This document shows, one piece after another, positions 20,414-57,964 of a stretch of 63,461 nt of DNA (positions are counted from its first letter, which is position 1; every line of letters starts with the position of its first letter). The position numbers and the translations under genes are program-made. The notes under the pieces are model-generated. The model worked only from the letters and a program-made list of their open reading frames with translations, was not told the DNA's origin and ran no database searches. The stretch spans positions 1 through 63,461 of the forward strand of contig JAQVHV010000002.1 of assembly GCA_028696055.1 (NCBI GenBank), given 5' to 3'. Origin of the DNA: Sulfurovum sp. (GTDB taxonomy: Bacteria > Campylobacterota > Campylobacteria > Campylobacterales > Sulfurovaceae).

Positions 20414-21142
20414 ATGACCACACTGTTTGAAAAGGGGGTACGTGCGTATGAAAACAAAGCGTATCCTGCTGCCTATCAGCATTTTGAAGAAGCGGCATCC
20501 GAAGAGCATAAGGATGCGATGGTAAATCTTGCCCTGATGCACATGAAAGGTGCCGGATGCGAAAGAGATCTGCAGTCGGCTGAAAAGTGGTTTGAAAAGG
20601 CGGCATCACTGGGACATACGCATGCGATGATGAGCCTTGCCCATTTCTATGAAAAAGGTATGGACGGGAAGCCCGATAAGGAGAGGGCACTAAAGTACTA
20701 TCTTCAGGCAGCCGATCACGGGGTGGTCGATGCCCAGCTGAAGGCGGGGATGATCTTCAGGGAACAGGGGGAGATCTCCAGGGCAATGCAGTACCTGATC
20801 ACCGCTGCGCACAACAACAACCCGCAGGCACAGGCACTCATTACCTATGTAAGCAATGCAGGGTTAGATGGGAGCTATAACGAAATGTTCAGGTCCCTGG
20901 ATGAAGCCAAACAAAAAGCACTGGTAGAACATATGATTGAAACCAGGATACGTCCTACGCTGGAGGCGGACAGCGGAGGGATTGGGCTGATCAACTATGT
21001 CGCAGGAGATGTCCCTCAAATATGGCTGAACTATCTTGGGGCCTGTTCGGGATGCCATCTTGGGTCTACTTCGACGGCGGATATGCTTCTTGACCGGTTC
21101 GAGGCATTGATCGACAAAAATGTCGTACTTTATCTGATGTGA
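20414..21142 (+). CDS. SEL1-repeat protein fused to a NifU C-terminal-like domain
   Basis: SEL1 repeats (AEKWFEKAASLGHTHAMMSLAHFYEKG) then IRPTLEADSGGIGLINYVAGD...YLGACSGCHLGSTSTADMLLDRF. Confidence 0.8.
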   Translation: MTTLFEKGVRAYENKAYPAAYQHFEEAASEEHKDAMVNLALMHMKGAGCERDLQSAEKWFEKAASLGHTHAMMSLAHFYEKGMDGKPDKERALKYYLQAADHGVVDAQLKAGMIFREQGEISRAMQYLITAAHNNNPQAQALITYVSNAGLDGSYNEMFRSLDEAKQKALVEHMIETRIRPTLEADSGGIGLINYVAGDVPQIWLNYLGACSGCHLGSTSTADMLLDRFEALIDKNVVLYLM

Positions 21143-25730: not shown

Positions 25731-26205
25731 GGCTGTTCGTGGCAACGCTGTAAAGTGCACTTTATGCGTAATATTTTAGCCTATGTTTCCCCAAAAAGCA
25801 AAAGAGCTGTTTGCTGCCAGACTAAAACAGATATGGCTACAGCCTGATTTTAAAAGCGCTATGGCTATGTCCAATCTTATCACGGATGAATATAGCTCCT
25901 TGTACCCGGATGCCATCAAGTGCCTGGAGGATGGGTTGGAAGACAGTTTGCAGTTTTATCACTTTGGTAATATTGACCATAGACGCATCTCATCTACCAA
26001 TGTACTCGAACGCCTGAACAAAGAGATACGGCGCAGAAGTAAGGTGGTTGGTGTCTTTCCAAGTCAGGAATCCTATATACGACTGCTTACATGCTATCTT
26101 ATGGAATATACCGAAGAGTGGGAGGTTGAACGAAGCTACATTAAACCGGAAAAACTAGTGACAGTGATGGAGACAAGAGAGAGATTGCTACAAAAAGTAG
26201 CCTGA
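25731..26205 (+). pseudogene. IS256-family transposase C-terminal remnant with frameshift
   Basis: GCSWQRCKVHFMRNILAYVSPKSK in one frame, then ELFAARLKQIWLQPDFKSAMAM...NVLERLNKEIRRRSKVVGVFPSQESYIRLLTCYLME in the next. Confidence 0.85.
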
Positions 26206-28625: not shown

Positions 28626-29840
28626 TCACGCTTCGGCGCTCTCTTCTTTTTTGAATGTATAGATCGGTTCCTGGGTCGGATCTTTGATCACGGCTTCTGT
28701 GATGATACACTTCTCCAGTCCCTCTTTGGAAGGGCAGCTGTACTGAAGCGGGAGCATCGACTCTTCTATGATCCCTCTGAGCCCACGTGCGCCGACACCT
28801 TTGTCTATCGCTTTTTGTGCGATCGCCTCAAGTGCCGCATCTTCAAACTCCAGTGCTATCCCATCCATCTCAAAGAGTGCCTGGAACTGTTTGATCAGGG
28901 CATTGTCCGGTTCCCTGAGGATCTGAACCATCTGCTCTTTTGTCAGCTCTTTGAGCTGTGCGATGATCGGGATACGTCCTATGAACTCCGGGATCATCCC
29001 GTAATGTACCAGGGCTTTCTGATCGACCTTGAATTCTTTCATCTCCGCTTTTTGCACGGAACCGAACCCAACCTTGTTGGTCTTTTTGGTATGTCTGTCC
29101 GGCACAAGTCCTACAAAGGCCCCGCCACAGACGAAGAGCACATGTGTCGTATCAAAGAGCACGGTCTCGGTCGTAGAGTTCTTGCGGCTCCCTTTGACCG
29201 GCACATAGACCTCTGCACCTTCCAGGATCTTTAGCAGCCCCTGCTGTACGCCTTCCCCTGAGACATCTCTGCCCATGGTGGAACTTTCGCTTTTTCTGGC
29301 TACCTTGTCGATCTCATCGATATAGATGATCCCTCTTTGCGCCAGTTCCACATCGTAGTTGGCCGCTGCCAGCAGACGCGAGAGGATACTCTCGACATCC
29401 TCACCGACATAACCCGCTTCAGTAAGAGCTGTCGCATCAGCCACGGCAAAAGGGACATTCATGATCTTTGCAAGCGATTTTGCCAAAAGTGTCTTACCGC
29501 TTCCTGTCGGTCCGAGCAGCAGGATATTGCTTTTTTCCAGTTCCACATTGTTGTAGACCGGATTTTCGATACGCTTGTAGTGGTTGTATAAAGCTACGGC
29601 GAGGACTTTTTTGGCATCCTCCTGACCGATAATATGCTTATCTAAGAACGATACGATCTTTTCAGGCTTCGGAAGCTGCGCATGCAGGGAATGCTGCTGT
29701 TCGTACCGTACCTCTTTTTGGAGGATCGCTGCGCAGGTGGTGATACACTCATTGCAGATATTGCTCTTTTCCGAGGAGAACATCTTTTTGACTTCACTCT
29801 GTTTTCTCCCGCAGAATGAACAGGTTTTTTCCTGGCTCAT
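28626..29840 (-). CDS. clpX: ATP-dependent protease ATP-binding subunit ClpX
   Basis: CSFCGRKQSEVKKM zinc finger, LLLGPTGSGKTLLAKSLA, GYVGEDVES. Confidence 0.95.
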   Translation of the reverse strand: MSQEKTCSFCGRKQSEVKKMFSSEKSNICNECITTCAAILQKEVRYEQQHSLHAQLPKPEKIVSFLDKHIIGQEDAKKVLAVALYNHYKRIENPVYNNVELEKSNILLLGPTGSGKTLLAKSLAKIMNVPFAVADATALTEAGYVGEDVESILSRLLAAANYDVELAQRGIIYIDEIDKVARKSESSTMGRDVSGEGVQQGLLKILEGAEVYVPVKGSRKNSTTETVLFDTTHVLFVCGGAFVGLVPDRHTKKTNKVGFGSVQKAEMKEFKVDQKALVHYGMIPEFIGRIPIIAQLKELTKEQMVQILREPDNALIKQFQALFEMDGIALEFEDAALEAIAQKAIDKGVGARGLRGIIEESMLPLQYSCPSKEGLEKCIITEAVIKDPTQEPIYTFKKEESAEA

Positions 29841-30436
29841 GACTTATCCTTTGTGTTCAGGTTGGAGAGTACTTTATCGGCAAGACCGAACCTGATCGCT
29901 TCGGCTGCGATGAAATAGTTATCTCTGTCACTCTCTTTTTCGATCGTTTTGATATGCTTGCCTGTTGCAGCAGAGATGATCCTGTAGAGACGCTTTTTGA
30001 GACTGATGATATGGTTGGCCTGTATCTCGATATCGCTGGCCTGGCCTGAAGCCCCGCCCAAAGGCTGGTGTATCATCACTTCGGCATTGGGGAGGATATA
30101 TCTATGCCCCGGTTCACCACAGGTAAAGAGTACGGCTGCCATGGAAGCGACCAGTCCCATCCCGTAGGTATATACCGGAGCCGAGATCAGCTGCATCGTA
30201 TCGAGTATCGCCAGTCCTGCCATGACTGATCCTCCGGGAGAACTGATATACATATGGATAGGCTCACCGGAGTCTTCAGCTTCAAGGTAAAGCAGTTGGG
30301 AGACGATGATCCCCATCATATGGTCATCGATAGGTTCTGTGATCATAATGACCCTGTCTCCCATCAGTTTGGAAAAGAGGTCGAAGTATCGCACTCCTCG
30401 TGGGGACCGGTCCTTTACCGTCGGTATGTATGGCAT
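29837..30436 (-). CDS. clpP: ATP-dependent Clp protease proteolytic subunit ClpP
   Basis: MYISSPGGSVMAGLAILDTM, GMGLVASMAAVLFTCGEPGHRYILPNAEVMIHQPLGG; overlaps clpX. Confidence 0.95.
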   Translation of the reverse strand: MPYIPTVKDRSPRGVRYFDLFSKLMGDRVIMITEPIDDHMMGIIVSQLLYLEAEDSGEPIHMYISSPGGSVMAGLAILDTMQLISAPVYTYGMGLVASMAAVLFTCGEPGHRYILPNAEVMIHQPLGGASGQASDIEIQANHIISLKKRLYRIISAATGKHIKTIEKESDRDNYFIAAEAIRFGLADKVLSNLNTKDKS

Positions 30437-30585
30437 GGTTTATCCTTTGATTGAAATAACGCTTTCAAAGCAAAGCTTCTCAAGCTACGTTAACACTAGG
30501 TTCTCTTCAGCAGAGGGCTCTCGCACTAGTGCTTTGGACTTCTTGCTCACAAGAAGTCGATTAATGTTTCTTACAATTTTCATCA

Positions 30586-31440
30586 CTATACAAACGCTTT
30601 CGTGAATTCTTTCAGAGACATCTTCAGCAGTTCAAGATTGTGTTTTTCGATAAATTTTTCCTCTTTTTTGCTCAGCGGTTGGTCATTGACAAAGTAGCCT
30701 CCCTCAAGATCGATCGTAAGTTCATTGGCAACCATCCTGTCCGTGTCCCGGTCAAAGGCTGTACCCAAAAAAAGGTACTTTTTGGTCTTTCTGTAGGTCT
30801 TCAACACAGAAGGGACCGCAAATCCGCCCATTGCTTCGGTCAGCCAGTCGACATAATCGGCATCCGATATCACAAAGCTTGGCTCGGGCAGCGGGGTGCC
30901 CATCGGTTTAAAGAGGATTTTCTTTGCATCATCGAGTGCATCCTCTTCCACCTGAAAATACTTTTTGTTTTCCAGATCCCATTCAAAGATCTCATACCTG
31001 TAGTCATTATCCATTATCCTGGATTTTCCGACGATCAGGGTATGGGGCTCATAGGCGAGAAGCTCCTGTATCTTGCTGTCGCGGTTGGTATCGATGATGT
31101 AGCGCGGCTGCATATTGAGTATCGCTTTTTGCAGCGGCGTGGGATCGAACGGTTTGGTATAGATCCAGTGCATCATCTGCTGGATATAGTCTACGCCCCT
31201 TCGCTGTTCAAGGTGCATGGCAGCCCTGGAGTACTCGAACATCAGCCTTTGGCTCATAGCCCTCCCGTTGTTCATCATCAGGATCATAGAGTCCGAGTCA
31301 TAGGGGATCTGTTCACCCTCTTTGGTTTTTGTACCTTCAAAAATGCCCATGCCAAAGTAGGGTACAGTGGTTTGGTTTCTGAGTTCTTTTTTGATCGTCT
31401 CTATCGTATCATCTATGGTTAATGCAGTCATTAGTGGCAT
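30586..31440 (-). CDS. SIR2-like domain protein
   Basis: KPMGTPLPEPSFVISDADYVDWLTEAMGGFAVPSVLKTYRKTKKYLFLGTAFDRDTDRM is SIR2_2-like. Confidence 0.65.
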   Translation of the reverse strand: MPLMTALTIDDTIETIKKELRNQTTVPYFGMGIFEGTKTKEGEQIPYDSDSMILMMNNGRAMSQRLMFEYSRAAMHLEQRRGVDYIQQMMHWIYTKPFDPTPLQKAILNMQPRYIIDTNRDSKIQELLAYEPHTLIVGKSRIMDNDYRYEIFEWDLENKKYFQVEEDALDDAKKILFKPMGTPLPEPSFVISDADYVDWLTEAMGGFAVPSVLKTYRKTKKYLFLGTAFDRDTDRMVANELTIDLEGGYFVNDQPLSKKEEKFIEKHNLELLKMSLKEFTKAFV

Positions 31441-31946
31441 CCTTTCCCTGTATAGCAGGCCTGTGCTGCCGCCATCTTTCTTAGCAGCATATCGTGATCG
31501 AAGGGGTTGCTGATATCTTTGGGATATTCATCATAAAAGAGTGCCCCGTCCCTGGAGATCAGCATGAGTGATTTGGTGAACTCGCCTTCTAGCACATCGC
31601 CATGCAGCCTGATGCCGTACCAGTCCCCAAACTCTCCCTCCTTGTCGATCAGGAAGTCGATATGATCCAGGTGCGGATTTGCATGCTGAGCATTTGCAAC
31701 GATCAGGTGACACTCTATTTCACTTTCCTCTTCTGATGAGAGGAGCGTATCCAGCTTCCGAAGCTCATCTTTTACTGTCTTGTTGATAAAAGGCAGAGCG
31801 ATGATCAGCTGTGTTTTCCCGTTGTGCCCGCCAACACTCTGTTGTGTATTCTTCTCATCATATAATGTGATTTTTTCTGATGCGTAACCTATATCCATGG
31901 GAATATCCTCAAGTTCTAAAGTGTATGTGTTGTAGTGCACCTGCAA
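31431..31946 (-). CDS. Peroxiredoxin (Tpx)-like protein lacking the peroxidatic Cys
   Basis: LPFINKTVKDELRKLD occupies the Tpx PSxxTxVCxxxxRKFN position; FTKSLMLISRDGALFYDEYPKDI; C-terminal CYTGKGCH. Confidence 0.55.
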   Translation of the reverse strand: MQVHYNTYTLELEDIPMDIGYASEKITLYDEKNTQQSVGGHNGKTQLIIALPFINKTVKDELRKLDTLLSSEEESEIECHLIVANAQHANPHLDHIDFLIDKEGEFGDWYGIRLHGDVLEGEFTKSLMLISRDGALFYDEYPKDISNPFDHDMLLRKMAAAQACYTGKGCH

Positions 31947-32066
31947 GTAAGACTCCTAAAATAGAACTGATGATTGCGATATACATTGCGTGTAGATCGG
32001 GAGCGTTGTATCGATTTCTGATCATACACGCTTATACTCTGCTTTCATCATCTCATTGTAACACTC

Positions 32067-32084
32067 TTGCAAATTGTGTTCCAA
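32067..32084 (-). promoter_or_regulatory. Sigma-54 promoter TTGGAACACAATTTGCAA
   Basis: GG-N10-GC on the reverse strand upstream of the Prx-like/SIR2/ClpP/ClpX block. Confidence 0.75.
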
Positions 32085-32142
32085 CTTGAAAGAGAGAGGA
32101 AAGGGCACAGGCATACAACTCATCCCATTCTCATTCAAAAAA

Positions 32143-32156
32143 CGACAAAAATGTCA
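32143..32156. promoter_or_regulatory. Palindrome CGACA-AAAA-TGTCA between divergent sigma-54 promoters
   Basis: Matches ACA-W4-TGT motif seen upstream of other nif genes. Confidence 0.5.
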
Positions 32157-32196
32157 TTGTCTGTGTAGGAAGTTGATCGTGATGCCAGGAGTCAGG

Positions 32197-32214
32197 CTGG
32201 AATATATTTTGCAT
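32197..32214 (+). promoter_or_regulatory. Sigma-54 promoter CTGGAATATATTTTGCAT (nifB)
   Basis: GG-N10-GC about 70 bp upstream of nifB ATG. Confidence 0.75.
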
Positions 32215-32284: not shown

Positions 32285-33703
32285 ATGAGTTGTTGTTCGA
32301 GTAATCCGGCAGAAAATTTTATGCCTGAGGATATTCAGGAGAAGATTCATAACCATCCATGTTATTCCGAGGGGGCGCACCATCACTATGCACGTATACA
32401 TGTTGCGGTAGCTCCCGCGTGTAATATACAGTGCAATTACTGCAACCGTAAATATGACTGTTCCAATGAGAGCCGTCCGGGAGTCACCAGTGAAAGGCTC
32501 ACTCCCGAAGAAGCGGTAAAAAAAGTGATGTATGTGGGTGGCGAGGTACAGCGCCTGAGCGTGCTTGGTATCGCAGGTCCGGGCGATGCGCTTGCAAATC
32601 CGGGAAAGACATTTAAAACCTTCAAAATGGTCAGGGAAAAGGCGCCGGATCTGAAACTCTGTCTCTCTACCAACGGGCTGGAGCTTCCGGCGTTTGTTGA
32701 TGAACTGGTAAAGTACGATATCGACCATGTGACCGTCACGATCAACAGTGTGGATACTACCGGAGAGATCGGTTCGCGGATCTATCCGTGGATCTTCTAT
32801 AACAATAAGCGCTACTTCGGGAAAGAAGCGGCACAGATCCTTCTGGAGCGTCAGCTTGAGGGGATGAAGAGGTGTGTGGAAAAGGGTATCCTGATCAAGG
32901 CAAACTCGGTACTGATCCCCGGCATCAATGACAAACACCTTCCCGAAGTCGCCAAAAAGCTCAAAGAGATCGGTGTGTTTCTCCATAACATTATGCCGAT
33001 CATCTCAGAGCCGGAGCACGGTACGAAATTCGGTCTGGAGGGTATACCGTCGGCAACAGACCAGCAGCAGATGGAGGTACAGGAAGCCTGCGGTATGGAT
33101 ATGAAGCTGATGCAGCACTGCCGTCAGTGCCGTGCGGATGCGGTAGGGCTTATCGGTGAGGACCGAGGCCAGGAGTTTACCAAAGAGACCTTTGCCAATA
33201 TGACTTTTGATGAACTCGAGATCAAATACGATATCGAAGGCCGGCAGGAGAGCCAGGCGAAGATCGAAGAGTTCAGATACTTCCTTGACAAAGCCAACGA
33301 ACGTGTCAGAAGAGAAAAAGAAGAGCTAAGCAGTGATGGAGAGACGATCCTCGTGGCAGTCACGACTGCCGGTGAGGGGATGATCAACCAGCACTTCGGT
33401 TCGGTCAAAGAGTTCCTGATCTATGAGGCCGGGGACAGAGGTATCCGCTTTATCCATCACAGAAAAGTAGCGTATGAGTACTGTGCCGGCCCGGATGGTG
33501 TGAACCCGATCGACGGCATTGTCGAAAAGCTCAAAGACTGTAAATTGATCCTCACAGCCAAGATTGGCGGATGCCCCCAGGATGATCTGGCAAAAGCGGG
33601 ATTGATCGCAGACCAGAGCTACGCTTTTGAGCCTATCGAAGCGTCAGTGCTGAAAGCGGCACGCAAGTACTTCAACCTGCCCGAGGAGCTGGAGGCGAAT
33701 TGA
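32285..33703 (+). CDS. nifB: Nitrogenase cofactor biosynthesis protein NifB (radical SAM plus NifX-like C-terminus)
   Basis: VAVAPACNIQCNYCNRKYDCSNESRPGV; C-terminal TTAGEGMINQHFGSVKEFLIYE. Confidence 0.97.
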   Translation: MSCCSSNPAENFMPEDIQEKIHNHPCYSEGAHHHYARIHVAVAPACNIQCNYCNRKYDCSNESRPGVTSERLTPEEAVKKVMYVGGEVQRLSVLGIAGPGDALANPGKTFKTFKMVREKAPDLKLCLSTNGLELPAFVDELVKYDIDHVTVTINSVDTTGEIGSRIYPWIFYNNKRYFGKEAAQILLERQLEGMKRCVEKGILIKANSVLIPGINDKHLPEVAKKLKEIGVFLHNIMPIISEPEHGTKFGLEGIPSATDQQQMEVQEACGMDMKLMQHCRQCRADAVGLIGEDRGQEFTKETFANMTFDELEIKYDIEGRQESQAKIEEFRYFLDKANERVRREKEELSSDGETILVAVTTAGEGMINQHFGSVKEFLIYEAGDRGIRFIHHRKVAYEYCAGPDGVNPIDGIVEKLKDCKLILTAKIGGCPQDDLAKAGLIADQSYAFEPIEASVLKAARKYFNLPEELEAN

Positions 33704-43373: not shown

Positions 43374-43387
43374 CGACATTTTTGTCG
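43374..43387. promoter_or_regulatory. Perfect palindrome CGACA-TTTT-TGTCG
   Basis: 16 bp upstream of the sigma-54 -24 GG at 43403; same motif as nifB upstream. Confidence 0.5.
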
Positions 43388-49581: not shown

Positions 49582-50856
49582 ATGGCAGTCAAACAGGTCT
49601 TTCATCTCAAACAAAAACAGATACCGCGTCTCTCTATGCAGACATGGTTGCCTTTGCTGCAGTGTTCACTTTCGGACCTGGAAAAACATATACAGAATAT
49701 CGCCAATGAAAACCCCTGTCTGGAGGTGACTTCCGGCTTTGAGGTAGCGGAAAGTTCGTCAAGCAGTACGCATCAGGCATATCTCTCCTATCAGAACCGC
49801 GTCTCCAATGCATCAAGCGATGAGATAGAGTGGATGAGTATCTCTACCCAGTCACTCTATGAAAAACTCGATGAGCAGATCGCCGCACCGCTCTTCCCTA
49901 CACCGATCTCTCAGAAGATTGCAAAACAGATCATCTTTTATATCAGTGACGAGGGGTATTTTGAAGGAGATATTGAGGAGATCGCCGTACAGTGTAATGT
50001 ACAGGCAGCCCAGGTCGAGTCGGTCAGACAGCGTTTTGCCTATCTCCAGCCTTACGGGGTGGGGGCAAGGGACTATAAGGAGTCCTTTTTGTTCCAGCTC
50101 AACGAGTTTGACCTGGATGATGATATGAGTCTGCTGCTCAGTGCGATGATCATACGGTTCGAATCCCTGGAAAAGTTTATCAGCCATCCAAGATTTTCCG
50201 AAGCAAAAGAGGTACTAAAGCGTCTGAAAAACCCTCCGGCGATCAGATATATGGCAAGCGAACCGCCTATCCTGCCAGATCTTTTTGTCTATTTTGACGA
50301 AGATGGGCTGACGATAAAAATGAACCATGCATTCTATCCGGATCTCAAAGTGACACAGATCGACAAATATGAGAACTTTGCAAAGCAGAAGTTCAAAGAG
50401 GCAAGGGAACTGGTCAATCTTTTGGATCTGAGAAAAAGTACGCTCTATAATATTACCCTCGTACTGATAGAGAAGCAGTATCCGTTTTTTATGGGAGGAT
50501 CGTTGAAGCCTTTGAAGCTCCAGGATGTTGCCGAGGAGCTTGGATTTAATGAATCGACCATCTCCCGTGCGATAAGCGGAAAGTATCTGGAGACTGAGCA
50601 GGGTATTTTCTCTTTCAAGGAGTTCTTCTCCCATGCGATCGGCAATGTGTCCACGGCCGAGCTCAAAGCATTTATCCAAAGGTTGGTTCAGAGTGAGGAT
50701 AAAAACAAGCCTTACAGCGACAAGGCGATCCATGAGATGCTTGAGGCACGTTTCGGCATCCGGATGGTACGAAGATCTATCGCCAAGTACCGGCAGGAGC
50801 TGGATATCCCTTCCTTCAAGGAGAGGAAGTTCCTTTATCAGCTTGAGATGCTGTAA
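49582..50856 (+). CDS. rpoN: RNA polymerase sigma-54 factor RpoN
   Basis: PRLSMQTWLPLLQCSLSDLEKHIQNIANENPCLEV; HTH ELGFNESTISRAISGKYLETEQGIFSFKEFFSHAI; RpoN box VRRSIAKYRQ. Confidence 0.93.
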   Translation: MAVKQVFHLKQKQIPRLSMQTWLPLLQCSLSDLEKHIQNIANENPCLEVTSGFEVAESSSSSTHQAYLSYQNRVSNASSDEIEWMSISTQSLYEKLDEQIAAPLFPTPISQKIAKQIIFYISDEGYFEGDIEEIAVQCNVQAAQVESVRQRFAYLQPYGVGARDYKESFLFQLNEFDLDDDMSLLLSAMIIRFESLEKFISHPRFSEAKEVLKRLKNPPAIRYMASEPPILPDLFVYFDEDGLTIKMNHAFYPDLKVTQIDKYENFAKQKFKEARELVNLLDLRKSTLYNITLVLIEKQYPFFMGGSLKPLKLQDVAEELGFNESTISRAISGKYLETEQGIFSFKEFFSHAIGNVSTAELKAFIQRLVQSEDKNKPYSDKAIHEMLEARFGIRMVRRSIAKYRQELDIPSFKERKFLYQLEML

Positions 50857-57369: not shown

Positions 57370-57387
57370 ATAGAATGGGTATTGCAT
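57370..57387 (+). promoter_or_regulatory. Degenerate sigma-54-like site ATAGAATGGGTATTGCAT
   Basis: AG-N10-GC upstream of the Tpx-like gene. Confidence 0.35.
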
Positions 57388-57412
57388 GGTTTTGATTAAA
57401 AATGAGGAGATA

Positions 57413-57964
57413 ATGATGTATATTACAGTACACGGAACCAAAACAGCACTTCTTGGCAAAGAACAATCTGTCGGCAATGAGGCTCCGGCAGTCCGTATTA
57501 AAAAACTTGACGGCTCAGAAAATGTGATAGGGATGATCGCACCGAATGTGCAGCTTCTTATCGCTATCCCGTCACTCAAGACCGAAGTCTGTTCTCTGGG
57601 GGCAAAGAAGTTCAATGGGTTGATCAAGGAGTTTTCCAAACTCACTACTTATATGATCACCACCGATGATATGGAATTTGTCAAAGCGTATGCAGAAAAG
57701 GAGTCTATTGACAGCGCTGATATAGTGATCGATACCGAGAGAAACTTTGCAAGAAAATACGGTCTTCTGATCTCTGAGGGAAAACTCAAAGAGAGGCTGG
57801 CAAGAGCCGTCTTTGTGATCAATAGAGAAGGACTCATCGTCTATAAGGAAGTGGTCGCTGAGATCGTAGATGAGGTAGATTATGATGCCTGTATCGAAGC
57901 GGTCAGAAACGCAGTCCATATCAAGCAAAAAGGACATACACATGAGGATTGGATGTCTGCATAA
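57413..57964 (+). CDS. Thiol peroxidase (Tpx)-like
   Basis: VHGTKTALLGKEQSVGNEAPAVRI, PSLKTEVCSLGAKKFN, RLARAVFVINREGLIVYKEVVAEI. Confidence 0.8.
   Translation: MMYITVHGTKTALLGKEQSVGNEAPAVRIKKLDGSENVIGMIAPNVQLLIAIPSLKTEVCSLGAKKFNGLIKEFSKLTTYMITTDDMEFVKAYAEKESIDSADIVIDTERNFARKYGLLISEGKLKERLARAVFVINREGLIVYKEVVAEIVDEVDYDACIEAVRNAVHIKQKGHTHEDWMSA

What the first reader, a model, noticed from the sequence alone, without database searches (positions are those of the whole stretch)
28626..32214. nif-embedded block of Prx-like, SIR2-like, ClpP and ClpX genes behind a sigma-54 promoter divergent from nifB
Four consecutive leftward genes start from an intergenic region with two divergent GG-N10-GC sites: TTGGAACACAATTTGCAA for this block and CTGGAATATATTTTGCAT for nifB, with the palindrome CGACAAAAATGTCA between them. 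This implies a nitrogen-fixation-induced ClpXP with two unusual partners. Established precedent: in Azotobacter vinelandii a nif-cluster ClpX copy affects turnover of cofactor-assembly proteins. Pairing with ClpP, a SIR2-like protein and a Cys-less peroxiredoxin-like protein could form a redox- or NAD-responsive proteolysis module for nitrogenase. The ClpP-SIR2 gap (30437-30585) contains a repeat element, so cotranscription needs proof.
Basis: partly seen in the sequence, partly recalled or inferred. Interest (0 to 1): 0.85.

Follow-up and report, generated by a model that had tools for sequence, protein, structure and literature searches.

The report
Nitrogenase-linked ClpX/ClpP copies with pseudoenzyme partners
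Beside the nitrogen-fixation genes of this bacterium sits a conserved block with a second, altered copy of the ClpX-ClpP protein-shredding machine and two proteins that look like enzymes but lack key catalytic residues; it probably serves quality control of nitrogenase assembly, extending the one known case of a nitrogenase-specific ClpX.

Summary
The block is real: prx-like (31946-31431), SIR2-like (31440-30586), clpP2 (30436-29837) and clpX2 (29840-28626) run leftward from a sigma-54-type site divergent from nifB's. The genome has a second clpX and clpP elsewhere, so these are nif paralogues. The SIR2-like gene tracks nif: 32 of 250 campylobacterotal genomes, all with nifB. The four genes are nested, not a fixed unit: SIR2-like is near-universal in Campylobacterota nif genomes and recurs on rhizobial nif plasmids; clpX2 and prx are in many; clpP2 is confined mainly to the Sulfurimonadaceae type. 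Every complete nif ClpX2 examined has Gly and Asn/Ser where all nine housekeeping copies examined have Thr199 and His230, the ssrA-tag contacts of E. coli ClpX; ATPase motifs, pore loop and ClpP-docking loop are kept, and ClpP2 keeps its triad. The SIR2 fold lacks the catalytic His; the Prx fold lacks the peroxidatic Cys but has an invariant C-terminal GCH. Best reading: a nif-induced, non-ssrA ClpX2(P2) for nitrogenase-assembly proteins, a variant of Azotobacter ClpX2, with non-catalytic partners of unproven role. "Redox/NAD-responsive module" is untested; "Cys-less" is wrong.

The parts
28626..29840 (-). clpX2: nif-type ClpX paralogue (404 aa); Zn finger, Walker A/B and GYVG pore loop kept; VGF ClpP-docking loop; Gly at the Thr199 position and Asn at the His230 (RKH) position
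29837..30436 (-). clpP2: second ClpP (199 aa), catalytic Ser/His/Asp motifs ASM, MIHQP and SDRD kept; 4-bp overlap with clpX2
30437..30585 (.). clpP2-sir2 gap holding a dispersed repeat (6 matches in the genome including this one); gap about 15 bp in relatives; no minus-strand terminator-like site found here
30586..31440 (-). SIR2-like nif protein (284 aa): SIR2 fold, DTNxD kept, catalytic-His position is Met/Leu, SDADxVDWLTEAM motif invariant in the campylobacterotal family
31431..31946 (-). Prx/Tpx-like protein (171 aa, TTG start): thiol-peroxidase fold without peroxidatic Cys; invariant C-terminal GCH
31975..32067 (-). leader between promoter and prx; in relatives (L041, L134, L136, L141) an extra ORF (158 aa in L136) lies here and overlaps the prx start; it is missing in the window and in L133
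32068..32083 (-). -24/-12 (sigma-54 type) site TGGAACACAATTTGCA for the block
32143..32156 (.). palindrome CGACAAAAATGTCA, candidate activator site; ACA-N4-TGT core in 33 of 41 relatives' nifB upstream regions
32198..32213 (+). -24/-12 site TGGAATATATTTTGCA for nifB
32285..33703 (+). nifB, divergent neighbour

Best explanation
The block encodes a nitrogen-fixation-specific ClpX2, here with its own ClpP2, expressed with the nif regulon from a sigma-54 promoter. ClpX2 is a complete AAA+ unfoldase that can dock on ClpP, but its degron-reading loops have changed (Thr199 to Gly, His230 to Asn/Ser), so it probably no longer takes ssrA-tagged proteins and instead takes nif clients such as NifB and NifEN, as ClpX2 of Azotobacter does. 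In the Sulfurimonadaceae-type clusters it delivers them to ClpP2; in the other lineages it must use the housekeeping ClpP. The SIR2-like protein is a nif maturation or regulation factor in its own right: a SIR2 fold probably without sirtuin or NADase catalysis that binds a ligand or a partner protein; here it may act as an adaptor. The Prx-like protein is a pseudo-peroxidase with a conserved C-terminal Cys-His tail, perhaps a metal- or cluster-binding accessory. Shown by sequence: nif linkage, paralogy, residue changes. Predicted: folds, docking, loss of ssrA recognition. Inferred: induction, client identity, adaptor roles.
For: Second clpX and clpP exist elsewhere in the same genome; of 40 genomes searched, 22 (this one included) have two ClpX and 10 have two ClpP. 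Nif ClpX2 is one clade (100/100) apart from the housekeeping copies. Thr199 and His230 positions: Gly and Asn/Ser in all complete campylobacterotal nif ClpX2 examined, Thr and His in all 9 housekeeping copies examined, including this genome's; in E. coli H230A and T199A/V raise KM for GFP-ssrA strongly, and human ClpX, with Leu at both, does not degrade ssrA substrates (PMC7652416). Zn finger, Walker motifs and GYVG kept; docking loop VGF (one VGL) where clpP2 exists, mostly MGF where it does not. ClpP2 triad kept. All 44 flanked loci with clpP2 near sir2 also have clpX2. SIR2-like in 32 of 250 genomes, all with nifB (one with both broken), absent from the 216 counted as lacking nifB: Fisher p = 2e-38, not corrected for phylogeny. 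[AG]GAA[CT]-N5-TTGCA upstream of the block in 21 of 50 loci against 0.3 expected. Precedent: A. vinelandii ClpX2 regulates NifB and NifEN levels (Martinez-Noel 2011, seen only as a citation; nifWZM-clpX2 cluster); Azoarcus clpX/clpP under NifA control. P. stutzeri PST1325, annotated SIR2 family: non-polar mutant has 23% nitrogenase activity.
Against: No expression or protein data. Client identity rests on a distant precedent whose sequence could not be compared here. SIR2-like occurs without clpX2 in the Sulfurospirillum-type clusters and in the Pseudomonadota regions opened, so its primary role need not involve ClpX2. Some Sulfurimonas-type loci have prx-sir2 directly followed by nifS without clpPX2 (L182-L185). 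The promoter match is missing from 29 of 50 loci at this stringency. Orthology of PST1325 to this protein was not tested.
Confidence: 0.55

Rival explanations
1. A four-part redox- or NAD-responsive proteolysis switch: SIR2-like senses NAD or ADP-ribose and Prx-like senses peroxide, and both steer ClpX2P2 against nitrogenase after oxygen shock.
For: The genes are contiguous with overlaps in the Sulfurimonadaceae type; the SIR2 model matches NAD-binding DSR2/ThsA domains; the Asn and Asp of the DSR2 pocket (N133, D135) have counterparts N119 and D121 in nearly all homologues, so ligand binding is not excluded; a conserved Cys-His tail could be redox-active.
Against: Catalytic His position is Met/Leu in 36 of 36 and the peroxidatic Cys is absent; the partners separate freely in other lineages.
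Confidence: 0.15
2. SIR2-like and Prx-like are nitrogenase maturation factors unrelated to the protease; clpX2/clpP2 simply joined the same nif operon.
For: In Pseudomonadota the SIR2 gene sits in nifB-fdxN-nifZ-nifT or nifS-nifT-SIR2-nifB strings without clpX; Sulfurospirillum-type clusters have nifA-sir2 alone; PST1325 mutant has 23% activity.
Against: clpX2 lies within 4.5 kb of sir2 in 57 of 65 flanked loci, which suggests at least a common demand, though this set is biased to close relatives; G167 shows a second clpX near nifB without sir2.
Confidence: 0.35
3. ClpX2 is mainly a protein-remodelling chaperone for cofactor assembly, and proteolysis is secondary; this would explain lineages without clpP2.
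For: Many clusters have clpX2 without clpP2.
Against: The ClpP-docking loop keeps its hydrophobic-Gly-Phe form in nearly all ClpX2, including those without clpP2, so docking on the housekeeping ClpP is expected.
Confidence: 0.2
4. Ordinary duplicate of the general ClpXP with no special substrate range.
For: It is a full ClpX by family score.
Against: One deep clade with two fixed changes at ssrA-contact positions and strict nif linkage.
Confidence: 0.07

Closest known systems
ClpX2 of the Azotobacter vinelandii major nif cluster (nifWZM-clpX2; Martinez-Noel 2011)
   Same: second ClpX copy inside a nif cluster
   Different: here next to SIR2-like and Prx-like genes with its own clpP2, divergent from nifB; sequence relation to the Azotobacter copy not tested (sequence not at hand)
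nif-linked 'SIR2 family protein' of Pseudomonadota (R. capsulatus Rcc03262, P. stutzeri PST_1325, Z. mobilis ZMO1821, rhizobial symbiotic plasmids)
   Same: SIR2_2-related protein in nif clusters; the rhizobial members align over 91-97% of the length, E down to 2e-20
   Different: about 22-26% identity; the rhizobial branch has Trp for the pocket Asn and keeps His in some; the campylobacterotal branch keeps Asn and has Met/Leu for His
DSR2 / ThsA SIR2 NADase domains (anti-phage defence)
   Same: closest solved folds (E about 1e-9, TM about 0.65)
   Different: stand-alone, nif-linked, no defence-model match, catalytic His missing
Thiol peroxidase Tpx (e.g. 2yzh, H. pylori Tpx)
   Same: fold (TM 0.82)
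   Different: no peroxidatic Cys; C-terminal YTGxGCH tail
E. coli ClpXP
   Same: ATPase, pore and docking motifs; ClpP triad
   Different: Thr199 to Gly and His230 to Asn at ssrA-contact positions

Membership tests
ClpX | family score, Zn finger, Walker A/B, GYVG pore loop | tested here: met
ClpX | ClpP-docking loop (IGF type) | tested here: met
   VGF in the window
ClpX | ssrA-contact residues Thr199 and His230 | tested here: not met
   Gly and Asn; not a defining trait of all ClpX (human ClpX lacks both)
ClpP serine peptidase | Ser-His-Asp triad and family score | tested here: met
   it misses the clpP equivalog cut-off TIGR00493 (231 vs 309 bits) but passes the subfamily NF001368
nif ClpX2 (Azotobacter type) | second ClpX encoded in a nif cluster | tested here: met
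nif ClpX2 (Azotobacter type) | controls NifB/NifEN levels | not testable with these tools
   needs a mutant
Catalytic sirtuin / SIR2 NADase | SIR2 fold | tested here: met
   predicted model only
Catalytic sirtuin / SIR2 NADase | catalytic His (H171 in DSR2, H152 in ThsA) | tested here: not met
   Met/Leu in 36 of 36; position inferred from the rhizobial KPHG/TPHG column
Catalytic sirtuin / SIR2 NADase | pocket Asn-x-Asp | tested here: met
   N119 in 35/36, D121 in 36/36
Thiol peroxidase (Tpx) | peroxidatic Cys | tested here: not met
   position not Cys
Thiol peroxidase (Tpx) | Tpx fold | tested here: met
   pLDDT 91, TM 0.82 to 2yzh
sigma-54 promoter | GG-N10-GC with near-consensus flanks | tested here: met
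sigma-54 promoter | RpoN/NifA-dependent transcription | not testable with these tools
   needs RNA data; rpoN (about 50 kb) and a nifA-type activator (about 56 kb) are in the window

The most novel reading that the evidence does not exclude
A nitrogenase-dedicated ClpX2P2 protease that has shed ssrA recognition and is loaded by two pseudoenzymes, a SIR2-fold protein that binds a nucleotide without cleaving it and a peroxiredoxin-fold protein with a Cys-His tail, so that turnover of nitrogenase-assembly proteins follows cell energy or cluster state.
Probability: 0.15. Interest if true: 0.85.

Novelty: new variant of a known kind. Interest (0 to 1): 0.55.

Why it matters
A nif-specific ClpX was known mainly from Azotobacter; here it is found as a separate, deep ClpX clade across nitrogen-fixing Campylobacterota, with a predicted loss of ssrA recognition that can be tested in vitro. 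It also puts a recurrent but uncharacterised nif gene, the 'SIR2 family protein', in a new light: one group has supposed it to be a deacetylase (Z. mobilis, PMC8600466), whereas the campylobacterotal branch appears to lack the catalytic His. Nitrogenase protein stability is a bottleneck in engineering nitrogen fixation (general knowledge; instability of NifB is noted in the abstract of PMC5715403).

Tried and rejected
Only clpXP in the genome: rejected. SIR2-like as an anti-phage defence gene: no PADLOC match and strict nif linkage. SIR2-like as active deacetylase or NADase: weakened by the His replacement. Sequence search of the PDB with the SIR2 profile gave only chance hits; the fold search was needed. 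Prx-like in plasmids: no match. NifA site TGT-N10-ACA in the window's nifB-prx region: none. ClpX2 search in plasmids to find nif-linked copies in other phyla: only general clpX among the 15 rows listed. The 2011 Azotobacter ClpX2 paper is not held. A misbinned contig was considered: the housekeeping ClpX groups with the host genus while the nif ClpX2 groups with Sulfurimonadaceae; a flanking window gene is closest to a same-genus genome at 86% but almost as close to Sulfurimonadaceae at 84%, so horizontal transfer is likelier than misbinning but not proven; the paralogy claim also holds in single-contig genomes such as G191, G116 and G163.
Full report
Observation. Reading the window minus strand gives four ORFs in order prx-like, SIR2-like, clpP, clpX. 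Family scans name ClpX and ClpP with confidence; the SIR2-like and Prx-like proteins match below the curated cut-offs, so their assignment was checked by structure prediction: the SIR2-like model (mean pLDDT 84, pTM 0.87) matches DSR2 and ThsA SIR2 domains (E about 1e-9, TM about 0.65), and the Prx-like model (pLDDT 91) matches thiol peroxidases (2yzh, TM 0.82).

Paralogy. The genome carries another ClpP (C14, 295 bits) and another ClpX (C97, 603 bits). Of 40 genomes searched, 22 (G000 included) have two ClpX, and 10 (G000 included) have two ClpP. The genomes with a second ClpX all carry a full-length nifB. A tree of 30 ClpX puts all 21 nif copies on one side of a branch with 100/100 support, and the window genome's own housekeeping ClpX with its genus.

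Linkage to nif. In 250 genomes of the phylum, SIR2-like occurs in 32; full-length nifB occurs in 33, plus a broken nifB in G224. All 32 SIR2-like genomes fall in this set of 34; the exceptions without SIR2-like are G232 and G167 (Fisher p = 2e-38, without correction for shared ancestry). G007 and several Campylobacter-type genomes have shorter or weaker nifB-like matches and were counted as lacking nifB. Gene order shows three arrangements: nifB divergent from prx-sir2-clpP2-clpX2 (Sulfurimonas/Sulfuricurvum, and the window); nifA-prx-sir2-clpX2 without clpP2 (Sulfurovum, Arcobacter, Sulfurospirillum arcachonense); nifA-sir2 alone (other Sulfurospirillum-type genomes). Names come from record titles and matching contig lengths. 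The loci are biased to close relatives.

Beyond the phylum. tblastn in 72,556 plasmids finds 73 records, nearly all rhizobial, with 72 covering at least 80% of the protein at about 20-26% identity. In all five regions that were opened the gene lies in a nif string such as nifB-fdxN-nifZ-nifT-SIR2. The literature names such a protein in R. capsulatus, where it was not found in a nifA mutant, in Z. mobilis, Rhodovulum and P. stutzeri, where the non-polar PST1325 mutant keeps 23% of nitrogenase activity.

Residues. In DSR2 the pocket is N133, Y134, D135, H171. The campylobacterotal proteins have Asn (35/36), mostly Arg/Leu/Met, Asp (36/36), and Met or Leu in place of His. The His position is placed by rhizobial homologues, some of which read KPHG or TPHG in that column; the rhizobial proteins in turn have Trp for Asn. 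Neither branch that was read keeps the whole pocket. The stretch SD[AS]D-x-V-x-x-[LI]TE is among the best-conserved parts of the family. The Prx-like protein has no Cys at the peroxidatic position, and Cys169-His170 invariant in 39/39.

ClpX2 specificity. All nif ClpX2 that are complete have Gly before RDV[SG]G (Thr199 of E. coli) and RKN, RKS, KKN or KKS-like in place of RKH; the nine housekeeping copies read Thr and RKH. These residues contact the ssrA tag in E. coli; H230A raises KM greatly, and human ClpX, with Leu at both, does not degrade ssrA substrates. The docking loop is VGF (VGL in L042) in clusters with clpP2 and mostly MGF in those without, so docking is probably kept. Correspondence of window residues with E. 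coli numbering is by motif, not by a structure.

Promoter. The GG-N10-GC sites are 2 against 0.02 expected in the intergenic region, and sites scoring at least 14 are 11 in the window against 2.0 expected. Across relatives [AG]GAA[CT]-N5-TTGCA lies upstream of nifB in 30 of 38 loci (0.1 expected) and upstream of the block in 21 of 50 (0.3 expected). The pattern was chosen after looking at the window and some relatives, so these ratios are somewhat optimistic. The palindrome core ACA-N4-TGT is upstream of nifB in 33 of 41 (about 4 expected).

Gap. The 149-bp clpP2-SIR2 gap is a dispersed repeat (six matches including itself) that folds moderately well (z -2.7); a terminator-like match was listed there only on the plus strand, so read-through on the minus strand is plausible but unproven.

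Mechanism. See best explanation. Shown by sequence: paralogy, linkage, residue changes. Predicted: folds, docking, loss of ssrA recognition. Inferred: NifA/RpoN induction, Nif clients, adaptor roles of the SIR2-like and Prx-like proteins.

Noticed in passing
window 21113-21124, 32144-32155, 43375-43386: The 12-mer GACAAAAATGTC (or its reverse complement) occurs three times, each upstream of a sigma-54-like site; its core is conserved upstream of nifB in 33 of 41 relatives. Candidate activator site differing from the usual NifA TGT-N10-ACA.
   Followed up: partly
L043, L044, L049, L138, L164 and others, upstream of nifB: In many Sulfurimonas/Sulfuricurvum relatives the -24 element reads AGAAC instead of GGAAC at the same place, an unusual change of the GG pair of sigma-54 promoters.
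   Followed up: partly
window 49582-50856: The only rpoN found in this (87% complete) genome lies inside the nif cluster.
   Followed up: no
L041, L134, L136, L141 between promoter and prx: An extra Cys-rich ORF (158 aa in L136), judged NifX-like by eye only, overlaps the prx start; it is missing in the window and in L133, leaving a remnant.
   Followed up: partly
L070 (G224:C1:1421500-1441499): A nif cluster whose sir2, clpX2, nifB, nifV, nifH, nifD, nifK, nifE and nifN matches are broken into pieces while the housekeeping clpX is intact: a decaying nif cluster, or local assembly errors.
   Followed up: no
window nif block: The window genome belongs to a genus whose four other searched members lack SIR2-like and full nifB, while its ClpX2 groups with Sulfurimonadaceae: probable horizontal transfer of the nif region.
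   Followed up: partly
window 57386-57964: A second peroxiredoxin-like gene beside nifA matches Redoxin at 55 bits and has a Cys in the expected region, unlike the block's Prx-like protein.
   Followed up: no
window 25783-26205: Fragment of an IS256-type (Mutator family) transposase between nifS and clpX2.
   Followed up: no
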